Shown: positions 29,114 to 33,463 of the stretch, piece after piece
How the letters are laid out: the number at the start of each line of letters is the position of its first letter
How positions within the stretch are numbered: the first letter of the stretch is position 1
Assembly: GCF_025685575.1 (NCBI RefSeq)
Contig: NZ_JAGSYD010000002.1
Location: forward strand, 248,001 to 312,000
DNA length: 64,000 bases
Source: Granulicella cerasi
GTDB taxonomy: Bacteria; Acidobacteriota; Terriglobia; Terriglobales; Acidobacteriaceae
Direction: 5' to 3'
The notes under the pieces: model-generated
What the model saw: only the letters and a program-made list of their open reading frames with translations
What the model was told of the DNA's origin: nothing
Databases searched by the model: none
Made by a program: the position numbers and the translations under genes

Positions 29114-30925
29114 CTAAACGCCAGCCTTTTCGCTCAGCTCTGCCCAACGTTCGTAGATCGCATCGTGCTCGGCCTGCGCGGCTTCCAGCTCCGCCAACGC
29201 AGTCGTCAGCTTCGCCGCGTCGGTCGCCACCGCGGGATCTTCCACCGCGCCGCGCGCCTTGTCCAGGCGCTCATCGGCCGCTTCCACCTTCGCTTCAATG
29301 CCATCGAACTCGCGTTGCTCCATGTACGAGAGCTTCTTCTTCGAGCTGCTTGCCGCAGGCTTTGCCGAGGCTTCCTTCGGCAGATCGCCGCTCTGCGTGC
29401 CGGTCAACTCGCCGCTGCGTTCCTTCCACTCTTCCCACTGCATGTAGTCCGCAAAGACCTGCGCCTTGCCCTTACCATCCAGACCCAGCACCGTGTTCGA
29501 GACGCGATCGAGCAGATAGCGATCATGCGTCACCAATACGAGCGCGCCCTTAAACTCCAGCAACGCCTCTTCGAGAATCTCGAGCGTCGGGATATCAAGG
29601 TCGTTCGTCGGTTCATCAAGCACCAGCACATCCGCAAGCTCGAGCATCAACTTCGCCAGCAACACGCGCGCACGCTCGCCACCGCTCAAGCGCGCCACAG
29701 GCTGGTTCAACTGCTCGCCGGTGAACAAAAACTTCGCCGCATAGCTCGCAACATGCACCACCGCGCCCTGATACACCACACCATCGGAATCCGGTGCGAG
29801 CGCACGACGCAACGTCAACGACTCGTCAATCTCGCGGCGCTGCGAGAAGTACACTACGCGCAGATTCGCCGCACGCTTCACCGTGCCAGCGTTTACGGCA
29901 AGCTCGCCGGTCATCGCGCGCAAGATCGTCGTCTTCCCCGAGCCATTCGGCCCGACCAGCCCAAGCTTCATGCCGTTGGACAAGCCAAACGTCAGTCCTT
30001 CGACAATCTTCTTGTCACCCAGCGTGATGTTCACGCCCTCGAACTCAACGAGTCGCTTCGTCTGGCGATCCGTGGCATCGAACGCAATGCCTGCGCTCGA
30101 TGTGCGCGTGCGCGAGTCCACCTCTGCGAGTTTGCCGATCAACTCATGTGCGTTGTCGATGCGCGCCTTGGCTTTTGTCGCACGCGCCTTCGGTCCGCGA
30201 CGGAGCCACTCGATCTCCGTCTTGACGCGGTTGCGCAAGCCTTCCTGCATCTTCGACTGCGCTTCCATGTACTGCTCGCGGCCTTCGAGAAACTTCGAGT
30301 ATCCGCCACGCACGCGCAGCAGCCCCTCGGCGTACACGCGGCTCAACTCGATGATGTCCTTTGCCACGTTCTCGAGAAAGTAGCGATCGTGCGAAATCAC
30401 GACGACGGCCATGTTGCTCGTCTTCAACACGCCTTCAAGCCACTCGATGCCTTCAAGGTCAAGATGGTTCGTCGGCTCGTCGAGCAGCATCACGTCAGGC
30501 GCAACAGCCATCGCTTCTACGATCGCAAGACGCTTGCGCCAGCCACCGCTCAGCGTCGCCGCCTCTGCGGTGAACTCGTCAAAACCCGCACGGCCCAGCG
30601 TCTCGCGCAAACGCTGCTCGCGCTCTTCGCTGGGCACATCGGCTTCGGCCAGCGCGCGCTCAACCACCTGGCGAACACTCTTGCCTGCGGCATACTCCGA
30701 GATCTGGCGAACGTACGCGACACGCGCACGCTTGCGGCGCGACACATCACCGCTGTCCGGCTCCATCTCACCGCCGAGCACAGCCAGCAGCGTCGACTTT
30801 CCGGCACCGTTCGGGCCGATCAGGCCAATGCGATCGCCATCCGAAACGGTGAACGAAACATCGGAAAACAGGGGCGTGGCCCCGAACTTCTTACTTACAC
30901 TCTGGGCGCTGAGAATGGGAGGCAT
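29114..30925 (-). CDS. uup: ABC-F family ATPase (Uup-like)
   Basis: A cytosolic protein of 603 residues with two ABC domains and no membrane segments. Domain 1: GPNGAGKST, LSGGWRKRLAIVEA and LLDEPTNHLD. Domain 2: GPNGSGKTT, LSGGERARVLLAKL and VLDEPTNDLD. Between them is the ABC-F linker with its basic RGPKARATKAKARID stretch, which in this family reaches the ribosomal E/P site. Residues about 520-603 form a Lys/Ala-rich segment and then a coiled coil, as in Uup. ABC-F proteins act in translation or ribosome-associated quality control; Uup affects transposon excision in Escherichia coli. Resistance ABC-F proteins have longer linkers. It follows the CLC gene by 20 bases on the same strand and may be co-transcribed with it. 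Confidence 0.88.
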   Translation of the reverse strand: MPPILSAQSVSKKFGATPLFSDVSFTVSDGDRIGLIGPNGAGKSTLLAVLGGEMEPDSGDVSRRKRARVAYVRQISEYAAGKSVRQVVERALAEADVPSEEREQRLRETLGRAGFDEFTAEAATLSGGWRKRLAIVEAMAVAPDVMLLDEPTNHLDLEGIEWLEGVLKTSNMAVVVISHDRYFLENVAKDIIELSRVYAEGLLRVRGGYSKFLEGREQYMEAQSKMQEGLRNRVKTEIEWLRRGPKARATKAKARIDNAHELIGKLAEVDSRTRTSSAGIAFDATDRQTKRLVEFEGVNITLGDKKIVEGLTFGLSNGMKLGLVGPNGSGKTTILRAMTGELAVNAGTVKRAANLRVVYFSQRREIDESLTLRRALAPDSDGVVYQGAVVHVASYAAKFLFTGEQLNQPVARLSGGERARVLLAKLMLELADVLVLDEPTNDLDIPTLEILEEALLEFKGALVLVTHDRYLLDRVSNTVLGLDGKGKAQVFADYMQWEEWKERSGELTGTQSGDLPKEASAKPAASSSKKKLSYMEQREFDGIEAKVEAADERLDKARGAVEDPAVATDAAKLTTALAELEAAQAEHDAIYERWAELSEKAGV

Positions 30926-30945: not shown

Positions 30946-32226
30946 TTATTCTTCGGCCTTCGCAGCAAGCGCCTCCGGCAACTGCTTGCCCACGCCAGCA
31001 CGCTGCGCGTGGTAGATGCCTGCACGTCCGGAGAAGAGATACGCGCCCACGCAAGCGATCGCCGCGAACGCTCCAGCGTCAGCACCGAACAACTCCACAG
31101 CCATCAACGCCGAGGCGATCGGCGTGTTCGCCGCGCCCGCAAATACGGCGACAAAGCCCATGCCTGCCAGCAGAGATACAGGAAGCGGCAGCACATGCGA
31201 GAGCGCGTTGCCCAACGTCGCGCCAATGTAAAACAGCGGTGTCACTTCTCCGCCTTTGAAGCCCGTACCGAGCGTCAGCGAGGTGAACAGCGACTTCGCC
31301 ATGAAGTCCCACGGATGCACCTGGTGCAAGAAAGACTCCTGAATGACCGGCACGCCGAGGCCGATGTAGCGCGTCGTTCCCAACGCGAACACGGCGCAGC
31401 TCACAATGGCTCCGCCGAGGAACGGTCGCAGCTCGGGACGCGTGATGTGCTTCTTCGCAAACGCCGAGATCGCGTGTGTCGTGCGCGCGAAGAACATTGC
31501 CATCAACCCGAACACAGCGCCTGCAGCCATCGCCATCAGCAGATTGCTCGCCGCCAGCGCAGGTACCTCGTCCACTTTGTAGATCGTGTGACCCATGTGC
31601 ACGAGCTGCAGCAAGTGATGCGTTGTAAGGTCGCCGACGAAGGCCGCGAGGAAACATGGAGCAATCGCGTCATAGGACACCGCGCCAACCGCCAGCACTT
31701 CCAGACCGAAGATCGCGCCCGCTAGCGGCGTTCCAAACACTGACGCAAAACCCGCGGAAATGCCCGCCATCAGCAACACGCGACGCCCCGCTGCATTCAA
31801 GCCCAGCGGTCGTGCAAGCTGATCAGCCAACGACGCGCCGGTCTGGATCGCCGTGCCTTCGCGACCGGCAGAGCCGCCAAAGAGATGCGTCAGGAACGTG
31901 CCGATCAAAATGAACGGCGTCATGCGCAGCTTGATCGTGCGCTTCGGATCATGCACCTCGTCGATGATGAGGTTGTTCCCAGCTTCAACGTCTTTGCCGA
32001 AGTGCTTGTACAGCAACCCCACGCACAGCCCCACCGGTGCCAGCAGCCAGATCATCCAGCGATGCGCTTCGCGGATCGCTGTCGCCACGTTCAGCGACCA
32101 CAGCAACAGCGCAGAGGCCGCGCCAGCCATCAAGCCCACGGCGATCGCTACGGGCGTCCAACGAAAAAGCTCCCACGCCAGTGCAAACTGCGAAGGCTTC
32201 ACCTGAGTTGTTTGATCTTGAGACAC
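30946..32226 (-). CDS. eriC: CLC-F type fluoride/proton antiporter
   Basis: An integral membrane protein of 426 residues of the CLC family, about 10-12 hydrophobic helices. The gating-glutamate motif is G121-R-E123-G-T. Instead of the chloride-type GSGIP it has GNNLI at 83-87, and residues 325-332 read GGEVTPLF where Cl- types have a GGIFAP-like block. To my knowledge these changes mark the fluoride-exporting CLC-F clade, in which a Glu equivalent to E327 is important. The start is GTG 32226 with GGAGGAA just upstream. Right before it sits a fluoride riboswitch, which independently supports fluoride export. ABC-F follows on the same strand. Confidence 0.88.
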   Translation of the reverse strand: MSQDQTTQVKPSQFALAWELFRWTPVAIAVGLMAGAASALLLWSLNVATAIREAHRWMIWLLAPVGLCVGLLYKHFGKDVEAGNNLIIDEVHDPKRTIKLRMTPFILIGTFLTHLFGGSAGREGTAIQTGASLADQLARPLGLNAAGRRVLLMAGISAGFASVFGTPLAGAIFGLEVLAVGAVSYDAIAPCFLAAFVGDLTTHHLLQLVHMGHTIYKVDEVPALAASNLLMAMAAGAVFGLMAMFFARTTHAISAFAKKHITRPELRPFLGGAIVSCAVFALGTTRYIGLGVPVIQESFLHQVHPWDFMAKSLFTSLTLGTGFKGGEVTPLFYIGATLGNALSHVLPLPVSLLAGMGFVAVFAGAANTPIASALMAVELFGADAGAFAAIACVGAYLFSGRAGIYHAQRAGVGKQLPEALAAKAEE

Positions 32227-32227
32227 A

Positions 32228-32322
32228 CTTCCTCCTACGAGTAGAAATTCGTAGGAGTCATCAGCGTCCGAGTCTTCTTCGCAAACACTCGGAGCGGTTA
32301 GAGGCGGAACCCCATCGCCTTC
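32228..32322 (-). promoter_or_regulatory. Fluoride riboswitch (crcB motif) with ribosome-site-sequestering platform
   Basis: Read on the minus strand, the aptamer runs from 32322 to 32251. It begins with GGCGATGGGGTTCCGCC, continues with TAAC and a 6-bp stem CCGAGT/ACTCGG, and ends with GCTGATGACTCCTAC. These are the conserved blocks of the crcB RNA, and GGGGU (32313-32309) can form the expected pseudoknot with ACUCC (32258-32254). The expression platform is a 9-bp hairpin: CTCCTACGA (32257-32249) pairs with TCGTAGGAG (32240-32232), which contains the start of the GGAGGAA ribosome site of the CLC gene. Fluoride should free the site, giving a translational ON switch. Confidence 0.93.
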
Positions 32323-32361
32323 TGGATTACCTCCAGCTTACCCCAGCCAGGCACCAACGAC

Positions 32362-32388
32362 AAAGGCCGCCTCTCTCGAAGCGGCCCT
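32362..32388 (-). terminator. Probable terminator after mreB
   Basis: A 6-bp stem GGCCGC/GCGGCC (32365-32370 with 32381-32386) within a slightly longer imperfect pairing, 19 bases beyond the mreB stop, with CCTTTG on the minus strand. Modest strength. It would insulate the riboswitch unit from mreB transcription. Confidence 0.5.
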
Positions 32389-32404
32389 CATGGTTATTAA
32401 GTGC

Positions 32405-33463
32405 TTAGTCGATCGAAATCTTACGCAGCAGGCGGAAATCGCTGAGCATCTTGCCCGTGCCCAGCACCACCGAGGCCAGCGGATCATCCGCCACGGCAAC
32501 GGGCAGGCCCGTTTCTTCGCGAATGCGCTTGTCGAGGTTCTTGATCAGCGCGCCACCGCCCGTCAGCACGATGCCGCGGTCGGAGATGTCCGCCGAAAGC
32601 TCCGGCGGGGTGCGTTCCAGTGCGACACGAATCGCGTTCATGATCGTCGCAATGCACTCACCGAGCGCTTCACGAATCTCGGAGTCATCGATGGTGATCG
32701 TCTTCGGCACGCCTTCGATCAGGTTGCGGCCCGTGTACGTGCGCTGCTCGGGCTTGTCCAGCGGATACGCCGAACCCAGCTCAATTTTGATCTGCTCCGC
32801 CGTGCGCTCGCCGATCAGCAGGTTGTACTTGCGCTTGATGTACGTGATGATCGCCTCGTCCATCTGATTGCCGGCCATGCGGACCGAGCGCGAGTACACG
32901 ATGCCCGCCAGCGAAATCACAGCGATGTCCGTCGTTCCACCACCGATGTCGACGACCATGTTGCCGCCCGGCTCGGTGATCGGCAAACCCGCGCCAATTG
33001 CGGCCACCATCGCCTGCTCGACGAGATGCACTTCGCTCGCCTTGGCGCGATAAGCCGAGTCCATCACAGCGCGCTTTTCTACCTGCGTAATCTCCGAAGG
33101 CACGCCGATCACGATGCGCGGATGCACCATCATCTTGCGGTTATGTGCCTTCTGGATGAAGTAGTTCAGCATCTTCTCGGTTTGCTTGAAGTCGGCGATC
33201 ACGCCATCCTTCATCGGCTTGATCGCGATGATATTGCCCGGCGTACGGCCCAGCATCTCCTTCGCTTCCTTACCAACAGCTTCCACCTCGTTCGTCACAC
33301 GGTTCACAGCGATGATCGAGGGCTCATTCACGATGATGCCCTTGCCGTGTGCGTAGACCAGCGTGTTCGCCGTTCCGAGATCGATCGCCAGATCGCTCGA
33401 AAACAGGGAAAAAATCGACCGCATGTTGCCGCGCCCACTGCGCGATGAGAAATTCGAAGACAT
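32405..33463 (-). CDS. mreB: Rod-shape determining actin homologue MreB
   Basis: A bacterial actin of 352 residues guiding lateral peptidoglycan synthesis beneath the inner membrane. Blocks: SSDLAIDLGTANTLVY (phosphate 1), GVPSEITQVEKRAVMDSA, VVDIGGGTTDIAVISL (phosphate 2), RMAGNQMDEAIITYI, ELSADISDRGIVLTGGGALIKNLD and ADDPLASVVLGTGK. The N-terminal 13 residues (Ser/Arg-rich) may be a tail; an alternative start is the Met before RSIFSLF. Unusually, mreC, mreD and the PBP2/RodA genes do not follow; the next genes downstream are CLC-F and ABC-F. ald is divergent, 210 bases away. Confidence 0.95.
   Translation of the reverse strand: MSSNFSSRSGRGNMRSIFSLFSSDLAIDLGTANTLVYAHGKGIIVNEPSIIAVNRVTNEVEAVGKEAKEMLGRTPGNIIAIKPMKDGVIADFKQTEKMLNYFIQKAHNRKMMVHPRIVIGVPSEITQVEKRAVMDSAYRAKASEVHLVEQAMVAAIGAGLPITEPGGNMVVDIGGGTTDIAVISLAGIVYSRSVRMAGNQMDEAIITYIKRKYNLLIGERTAEQIKIELGSAYPLDKPEQRTYTGRNLIEGVPKTITIDDSEIREALGECIATIMNAIRVALERTPPELSADISDRGIVLTGGGALIKNLDKRIREETGLPVAVADDPLASVVLGTGKMLSDFRLLRKISID

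What the first reader, a model, noticed from the sequence alone, without database searches (positions are those of the whole stretch)
32228..32322. Fluoride riboswitch with a translational ON platform in front of a CLC-F gene
The minus strand carries all conserved blocks of the crcB aptamer, and GGGGU can pair with ACUCC as the pseudoknot. The distal bases CTCCTACGA are used either by the aptamer or by a 9-bp hairpin that hides the GGAGG of the downstream start, a clean mutually exclusive switch. The downstream protein has CLC-F-type changes (GNNLI and GGEVTPLF), so RNA and protein evidence agree. crcB-motif RNAs being fluoride riboswitches that control eriC-F genes is established knowledge.
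Basis: partly seen in the sequence, partly recalled or inferred. Interest (0 to 1): 0.8.

Follow-up and report, generated by a model that had tools for sequence, protein, structure and literature searches.

The report
Fluoride riboswitch controlling a fluoride exporter
A bacterium carries a standard fluoride-sensing RNA in front of a fluoride pump gene; without fluoride the RNA most likely folds so that it hides the ribosome landing site, which is a well-made example of a known kind of switch rather than something new.

Summary
Rfam's Fluoride model RF01734 hits window 32328-32245 (minus) at 51.5 bits, cut-off 34. The gene starting 4 bases after the GGAGG (32226-30946) encodes a CLC-F: GNNLI, GREGT and GEVTP are present, and the best solved relative is a CLC F-/H+ antiporter, 217 bits against 37 for a chloride CLC.

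The pseudoknot tail ACUCC lies in the 5' arm of a perfect 9-bp hairpin whose 3' arm holds GGAG of the Shine-Dalgarno. A tail-anchored stem of 7 bp or more occurs in 33 of 38 CLC-F leaders, against 25 of 91 Fluc leaders, and outer pairs covary. No terminator was found.

Most likely a translational ON switch: fluoride locks the tail in the pseudoknot and frees the ribosome site. Fluoride binding and regulation are inferred, not shown.

It is a new member of a known kind. Relatives add two less expected points: a second G-U wobble in the pseudoknot, present here, is common in CLC-F and rare in Fluc leaders; and 38 of 72 Fluc leaders carry a complement of the aptamer loop near the start codon.

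The parts
32245..32328 (-). Fluoride riboswitch aptamer (crcB motif RNA, RF01734)
   Evidence: cmscan 51.5 bits, gathering 34, E 2.3e-11, model 1-64 of 64
32303..32319 (-). P1 stem GGCG/CGCC (32319-32316 with 32306-32303) with the conserved loop between
   Evidence: RF01734 alignment; sequence
32308..32313 (-). Loop strand of the pseudoknot, GGGGUU; its third G (32311) faces U (second wobble of the pseudoknot)
   Evidence: sequence; comparison with relatives
32254..32259 (-). Tail strand of the pseudoknot, GACUCC; its CUCC is also in the anti-SD arm
   Evidence: sequence and RF01734 alignment
32264..32295 (-). Aptamer stem GC + UCCGAGU / ACUCGGA + GC (probably the P3 of PMC13273304)
   Evidence: RF01734 alignment; minimum-free-energy fold
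32249..32257 (-). Anti-Shine-Dalgarno arm CUCCUACGA (5' arm of the OFF hairpin)
   Evidence: perfect 9-bp inverted repeat; folds
32232..32240 (-). 3' arm UCGUAGGAG of the OFF hairpin, containing GGAG of the Shine-Dalgarno
   Evidence: covariation in 28 loci
32231..32235 (-). Shine-Dalgarno GGAGG, 4 nt before the GTG start
   Evidence: sequence; similar spacing in relatives
30946..32226 (-). CLC-F fluoride/proton antiporter gene (eriC-F), 426 aa, GTG start
   Evidence: ORF; PF00654 241.7 bits; 6d0j CLC F-/H+ antiporter 217 bits; GNNLI at 83, GREGT at 121, GEVTP at 326
32360..32391 (-). Strong hairpin just after mreB (stop at 32405), possibly the mreB terminator; its U-tract is weak and the terminator scan did not call it
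   Evidence: fold -22.5 kcal/mol for the piece 32360-32400, z -6.11; not listed

Best explanation
A fluoride riboswitch acting on translation. As the leader is transcribed, the aptamer (32328-32245) comes out before the Shine-Dalgarno. With fluoride (as a Mg-fluoride complex) the loop GGGGUU and the tail GACUCC close the pseudoknot; the tail is then unavailable, GGAGG stays single-stranded, and the CLC-F exporter is made. Without fluoride the pseudoknot, which carries two G-U wobbles, opens, and the tail CUCCUACGA pairs with UCGUAGGAG, hiding GGAG and blocking initiation at the GTG. Supported here by computation: the aptamer, the alternative hairpin, its conservation and covariation, the identity of the protein. 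Inferred from knowledge of the family: fluoride binding, the ON direction, and that the choice is made during transcription (the finished hairpin is predicted more stable than the pseudoknot pairing alone).
For: RF01734 hit. CLC-F assignment by three signature sequences (signatures as given in PMC11139923, passages) and by nearest solved structure, 217 v 37 bits; control: the genome's other CLC ranks ClcA-type chloride CLCs first, 90.7 bits, and CLC-F 39. Pfam CRCB (Fluc) not found in this genome, 0 of 1, which fits CLC-F as its fluoride exporter. Among 185 distinct RF01734 loci, a stem of 7 bp or more anchored on the tail is found in 33 of 38 CLC-F leaders with an ACTCC tail (window's included) and all 33 arms end in GGAG; in Fluc leaders of that tail 25 of 91, 21 ending in GGAG. 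In 25 of 28 nearest leaders, those my pattern parsed, 4-6 nt lie between AGGAG (AGGAA once) and an in-frame start. Covariation on 28 leaders (alignment A1): 88.8% of 242 cells paired, 11 cells changed on both sides (0 of 500 shuffles as high), score 0.101 (0 of 500) against 0.004-0.063 for six slid versions. Over 59 CLC-F leaders, other phyla included, 49 have a tail-anchored stem at p <= 0.05 (recounted). At least 4 of the tail's CUCCU bases pair downstream before the start in the minimum-energy fold of 38 of 38 ACUCC-type CLC-F leaders, against 47 of 72 Fluc leaders. No terminator-like site was found in 32150-32480.
Against: No fluoride response is shown. Pairing of the conserved tail CUCC with any GGAG Shine-Dalgarno is automatic, so the inner pairs (four of nine never vary) prove nothing; of the 11 both-side changes 9 come from one pair (columns 13/35), the outermost pair 14/34 is unpaired in 14 of the 19 sequences with letters there, and the measures 'further pair types' (53 of 500 shuffles as high) and 'pairs with a change on both sides' (14 of 500) are weaker. 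The OFF hairpin (-13.2 kcal/mol) lies well below the pseudoknot pairing (-5.8 for six pairs), and holding the tail open costs 10.6 kcal/mol in the model, so a simple equilibrium switch would sit OFF. With the tail blocked, predicted SD openness rises only to 0.40 in the window (from 0.00) and, with more coding sequence, from 0.11 to 0.24. Of 25 leaders folded this way L080 does not respond (0.45 to 0.42) and L079 hardly (0.02 to 0.08). The whole leader folds no better than expected (z -1.44). No sigma-70-like promoter was found in 32150-32480.
Confidence: 0.9

Rival explanations
1. The same aptamer works mainly on transcription: the hairpin 32257-32232, or a Rho site uncovered when ribosomes are blocked, ends the transcript without fluoride.
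For: Terminators are a known platform of this riboswitch class (PMC13273304, passages). Two CLC-F relatives outside the group (Dyella, L091 and L098) have the tail in a hairpin followed by a run of T (sequence).
Against: The bases after the hairpin are GAAGUGUGUC, no U-run; 0 terminator-like sites in 32150-32480. The arm covers the SD, 4-6 nt from the start in the 25 leaders parsed. Rho action cannot be excluded by sequence.
Confidence: 0.07
2. The leader binds fluoride but the short hairpin is merely a constitutive translation damper, with little exchange between the two folds.
For: The hairpin is much more stable than the pseudoknot pairing, and the model's SD release is partial.
Against: The stem is built on the aptamer's own tail and extends past the SD in 33 of 38 CLC-F leaders, and in other phyla with other sequences, which a plain damper would not need. 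The tail is made before the SD, so kinetic control is available.
Confidence: 0.03

Closest known systems
Translational fluoride riboswitches of Pseudomonas syringae and Burkholderia pseudomallei (crcB motif, RF01734)
   Same: Same aptamer family; used in PMC13273304 as translational controls, with 0% change in anti-termination (passages). That the P. syringae switch sits before eriC-F and hides the ribosome site is recalled from Baker et al. 2012, which was not held.
   Different: Here the anti-SD is the aptamer tail itself in a 9-bp hairpin with an 8-nt loop; the published platforms could not be read in detail, so no structural difference is claimed.
Bacillus cereus crcB transcriptional fluoride riboswitch
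   Same: The expression platform captures the pseudoknot strand in the absence of fluoride; in transcriptional members the terminator covaries along nucleotides that make the pseudoknot (PMC13273304, passages). A wobble pair in the pseudoknot is critical for switching (PMC11077080, abstract and passages).
   Different: There the competing hairpin is a terminator; here it hides the Shine-Dalgarno. The wobble studied there is position 1; by my count the window has that one and a second, at position 4.
CLC-F fluoride/proton antiporter of 6d0j (Enterococcus casseliflavus in the table of PMC11139923)
   Same: Best solved relative, 217 bits over residues 18-411; GREG and GEVTP shared.
   Different: The window protein has GNNLI where the solved chain reads GMNLV, and GREGT instead of GREGV (alignment).

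Membership tests
Fluoride riboswitch (RF01734) | Covariance-model match above the curated gathering score | tested here: met
   51.5 bits, gathering 34, whole model
Fluoride riboswitch (RF01734) | Loop-tail pseudoknot with conserved GAUGG loop and UGAUGACUCCUAC tail | tested here: met
   Both blocks present; GGGGUU/GACUCC pair with two wobbles
Fluoride riboswitch (RF01734) | Selective binding of fluoride | not testable with these tools
   Needs in-line probing or ITC
Fluoride riboswitch (RF01734) | Located directly before a fluoride-resistance gene | tested here: met
   CLC-F start follows 18 nt after the end of the aptamer hit
Translational ON riboswitch | Ligand-free fold hides the Shine-Dalgarno using a strand of the aptamer | tested here: met
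   Predicted SD openness 0.00 free, 0.40 with the tail blocked; stem of 7 bp or more in 33 of 38 CLC-F leaders; covariation, mostly at one pair. Prediction only.
Translational ON riboswitch | No intrinsic terminator in the leader | tested here: met
   0 sites in 32150-32480; 0.4 expected in shuffles
Translational ON riboswitch | Ligand raises translation | not testable with these tools
   Needs a reporter fusion
CLC-F antiporter | GNNLI/GMGLI, GREGT/V and GEVTP signatures (PMC11139923) | tested here: met
   Residues 83, 121, 326
CLC-F antiporter | Closer to solved CLC-F than to chloride CLCs | tested here: met
   217 v 37 bits; reversed for the genome's second CLC
CLC-F antiporter | Placement in the CLC-F clade of a tree with chloride CLCs | not tested
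   No such tree was built; the tree holds CLC-F only
CLC-F antiporter | Fluoride/proton exchange | not testable with these tools
   Needs a transport assay

The most novel reading that the evidence does not exclude
In this bacterial family both strands of the one fluoride pseudoknot have been recruited, gene by gene, to hold the ribosome site shut: CLC-F leaders (the window's kind) capture the tail strand with the Shine-Dalgarno and weaken the pseudoknot by a second G-U wobble (position 4) so that the hairpin can win without fluoride, whereas many Fluc leaders capture the loop strand with a complement of up to 10 nt lying between the Shine-Dalgarno and the start codon. If so, the OFF tightness of a fluoride switch is set by a single aptamer pair matched to its expression platform.
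Probability: 0.4. Interest if true: 0.55.

Novelty: new member of a known kind. Interest (0 to 1): 0.33.

Why it matters
For the window itself: it adds a well-supported fluoride switch and exporter in a lineage little mentioned in the papers searched (two papers hold both 'fluoride riboswitch' and 'Acidobacteri', search listing only), and the gene should be annotated as a fluoride, not chloride, transporter. The comparative set gives a natural test of how pseudoknot strength and expression platform are matched, a point raised experimentally for transcriptional fluoride switches (PMC11077080).

Tried and rejected
Considered and rejected: intrinsic terminator (no U-run); chloride CLC; a chance hairpin (conserved and extended past the SD in related CLC-F leaders; its rarity in the genome alone is no argument, since the reversed control pattern also occurs at one place); the window using the Fluc-type loop complement (best contiguous complement 5 nt, p 0.69, row L001, which is the window's own locus).

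Led nowhere: promoter scan (0 found); conserved synteny (an mreB match lies upstream in L061 and L002 only, of L061-L088 and L002; the ABC-F gene that starts 20 nt after the CLC-F stop had no match in the flanks held, at most 1500 bases); two papers of 2012 (not held).

Weaknesses of my own analyses: choose the best stem, so their pair tables lean towards pairing; shuffles kept single-base composition only. In one search a minimum loop of 3 made L080 score badly. In one search the pattern missed 3 of 28 loci (L068, L073, L084; they begin AAT, not GAT). In one search the loop pattern read the wrong place in some rows (L002, L061 and others); it was redone. One search kept 41 of 69 CLC-F and 88 of 92 Fluc loci for the wobble count (the rest, mainly Bacteroidetes CLC-F with other loops, did not match the pattern) and 40 and 72 for the leader test. 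The gene classes rest on tblastn with one CLC-F, two Fluc and one NADHdh-type query. The 185 loci are not a random sample: the best-scoring riboswitches of two searches, 80 further hits fetched (best first, some skipped) and 58 CLC-F loci, which itself kept the best 80 of 566.

Full report
What was claimed and what is there. On the minus strand the Rfam Fluoride model (RF01734) matches 32328-32245 over its whole length at 51.5 bits (gathering score 34, E 2.3e-11). It is the only Rfam match above threshold in the window, and the only RF01734 match listed in the genome. The sequence shows GGGGUU in the P1 loop and GACUCC in the tail; they can form six pairs with two G-U wobbles. The tail continues into CUCCUACGA (32257-32249), perfectly complementary to UCGUAGGAG (32240-32232) across an 8-nt loop. 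That 3' arm contains GGAG of the GGAGG at 32235-32231, 4 nt before the GTG start at 32226. The hairpin is -13.2 kcal/mol; the 36-nt piece folds better than all 200 shuffles, the whole 133-nt leader does not stand out (z -1.44). The pattern CTCCTAC-N3-25-GTAGGAG occurs at one place in the 4.08-Mb genome, but so does the reversed control pattern, so rarity alone says little.

The gene. The 426-aa product is a CLC (PF00654, 241.7 bits). Its best solved relative is the CLC fluoride/proton antiporter 6d0j at 217 bits; the best chloride-type CLC scores 37. It has the three CLC-F signatures listed in PMC11139923 (passages): GNNLI at 83, GREGT at 121, GEVTP at 326. As a control, the other CLC of the same genome has no G.NL, GRE[GA] or GEVTP and ranks ClcA-type chains first at 90.7 bits with CLC-F at 39. 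No Fluc (CRCB) match was found in this genome (0 of 1); that CLC-F and Fluc usually exclude each other is stated in PMC11139923.

Where it is. The nearest proteins in named records are 84% identical (L061, titled as a Micavibrio MAG, probably a mislabelled bin) and 60-69% in L062-L088, most of them titled Granulicella, Terriglobus, Edaphobacter or other Acidobacteria. RF01734 is found in 24 of 28 genomes of the genus (21 over the cut-off) and 126 of 150 of the family (116 over the cut-off). The riboswitch begins 76 bases after the mreB stop, behind a strong hairpin. An mreB match lies upstream only in L061 and L002 of the 29 loci tested.

Conservation of the switch. Of the 80 CLC-F loci kept, 79 were scanned with Rfam; 58 of 79 have RF01734 upstream on the sense strand, counting matches down to E 0.1. 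Of the 28 nearest (L061-L088) 27 have it; the other, L078, has almost no leader on its contig. With the window that gives 28 leaders, aligned as A1. In all 28 at least the inner pairs of tail and SD can form, but CUCC will pair with any GGAG, so this is not evidence by itself; L064 and L074 have no more than 5 pairs. In the 25 that my pattern parsed, AGGAG (AGGAA in L088) lies 4-6 nt before an in-frame ATG, GTG or TTG. The informative part is the extension beyond the SD. Across the 185-locus set a gapless stem of 7 bp or more from the tail is found in 33 of 38 CLC-F leaders with an ACTCC tail and in 25 of 91 Fluc leaders. On A1, 88.8% of 242 cells pair, 11 cells are changed on both sides (0 of 500 shuffles as high; mean 4.6), covariation score 0.101 (0 of 500; slid versions 0.004-0.063); 9 of the 11 come from columns 13/35, and the ninth pair is formed in only 5 of 19 sequences. 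Across 59 leaders including Bacteroidetes the tail-anchored stem is significant (p <= 0.05) in 49, and aptamer positions 57-59 show several pair types (choosing the best stem biases these). In several Bacteroidetes the arm ends a few bases before the start without an SD, and in two Dyella loci the tail is in a hairpin followed by a T-run.

How it most likely works. Fluoride stabilises the pseudoknot and holds the tail; without fluoride the tail pairs with the SD. In folds from the aptamer to shortly after the start, the SD is unpaired with probability 0.00 free and 0.40 with the tail blocked in the window; over the 25 leaders free values are 0.00-0.15 except L080 (0.45), blocked values 0.08-0.80. 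With 70 nt after the aptamer the window's change is 0.11 to 0.24, so release in the model is partial. At least 4 of the 5 CUCCU bases pair downstream in the minimum-energy fold of 38 of 38 ACUCC-type CLC-F leaders, and of 47 of 72 Fluc leaders. Because the hairpin is predicted more stable than the pseudoknot pairing (-13.2 against -5.8), the decision is probably made while the RNA is being made: the aptamer is complete before the SD arm exists. That step, fluoride binding and the ON direction are inference from the family (fluoride switches as ON switches: PMC11207198, passage).

A tuning feature. [quoted passage not shown] The window has, by my count, the position-1 wobble and a second at position 4 (loop G facing tail U), which costs about 0.9 kcal/mol in a duplex calculation. 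Among loci with a readable loop and tail, position 4 is G-U in 26 of 41 CLC-F leaders (12 A-U; 3 are not of the ACUCC type) and in 7 of 88 Fluc leaders (28 further CLC-F and 4 Fluc loci did not match the pattern). On trees of the proteins the state changes at least 8 times among 38 CLC-F and at least 6 times among 71 Fluc, so the contrast is not one inherited event; but this is no formal test and the wobble may have another cause.

A second platform in relatives, not in the window. Among 72 Fluc leaders with a recognised start, 38 have a contiguous complement (wobbles allowed) of at least 8 nt to the aptamer loop at p <= 0.01, 33 of the 72 over all 10 nt; 17 hold the exact AACTCCATCG. In the listed leaders it lies between the SD and the start codon or runs into it. 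Of 40 CLC-F leaders 0 meet that mark (3 reach p <= 0.05 with 7 nt). In the 40 Fluc leaders with an SD ending 9 nt before the start, changes in the spacer relative to the commonest loop are partly pairing-preserving and partly not (for example C for U opposite A at two positions, 5 each). The loop/spacer helix is in the minimum-energy fold of 38 of 41 such leaders (the p <= 0.05 set), of 7 of 31 other Fluc and of 7 of 38 CLC-F leaders. This looks like a different translational platform that takes the other strand of the pseudoknot; 34 of 72 Fluc leaders do not meet the mark.

Comparison with what is known. The riboswitch class, its control of eriC-F genes and translational members are established (PMC7266159, PMC11207198, PMC13273304; passages). 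Covariation of the competing terminator with pseudoknot nucleotides was published for transcriptional members (PMC13273304). The window's element is therefore a new member of a known kind. I saw no paper on the platforms of this family in the listings of searches, but the library holds open-licence papers only, the listings were capped, and the 2012 originals were not available.

Noticed in passing
Relatives' loci, e.g. L030, L033, L035, L037, L044, L045, L050, L158 (aptamer loop and the 9 nt before the GTG start): In many Fluc (crcB) leaders of the family the spacer between Shine-Dalgarno and start codon (AACTCCATC|G) is an exact or wobble complement of the aptamer loop CGATGGAGTT: 38 of 72 Fluc leaders at >= 8 nt and p <= 0.01, 17 of 72 exact, 0 of 40 CLC-F leaders. 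It looks like a translational platform that captures the loop strand of the pseudoknot; I saw no description of it.
   Followed up: partly
window 32311 (loop G of the pseudoknot) and the same position in relatives: A second G-U wobble in the pseudoknot is common in CLC-F leaders (26 of 41) and rare in Fluc leaders (7 of 88), with at least 8 and 6 changes on the protein trees.
   Followed up: partly
L142 (G140:C28:10500-30100) and other contigs of genomes G140 and G093: Some relatives have many RF01734 matches (14 in G140, 7 in G093). Nine reading frames of the G140 stretch were scanned: three dynamin-family proteins, two MutS domain V proteins, an enolase, an NADHdh-family (NuoH/HyfC-like) protein, an MFS protein, and one without a family. 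Enolase and the NADHdh protein follow the two arms of a divergent riboswitch pair.
   Followed up: partly
L007/L026 (G010:C1), L173/L209 (G142:C1, the same place as L071), L184/L190 (G127:C2): Pairs of fluoride riboswitches in divergent orientation 83-108 nt apart. In the first two pairs CLC-F is on one side and Fluc on the other; in the third CLC-F faces an unclassified gene.
   Followed up: no
L003, L006, L009, L013-L015, L019-L022, L025: Fluc loci within the window's own genus have another leader: tail ACTCCT followed by a hairpin-like stretch around CAGG, in several the clear Fluc frame begins 100-240 nt downstream, and a frame that I recall as DUF190-like follows. Their expression platform is unexplained.
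   Followed up: no
window 29114-30925 (-): An ABC-F ATPase gene starts 20 nt after the CLC-F stop codon and may share its transcript; no match to it was found in the flanks (at most 1500 bases) of L061-L088.
   Followed up: partly
L061 (JAPWJZ010000004.1): A record titled Micavibrio MAG carries an 84% identical CLC-F with the same mreB neighbour and riboswitch; the bin or its name is probably wrong.
   Followed up: no
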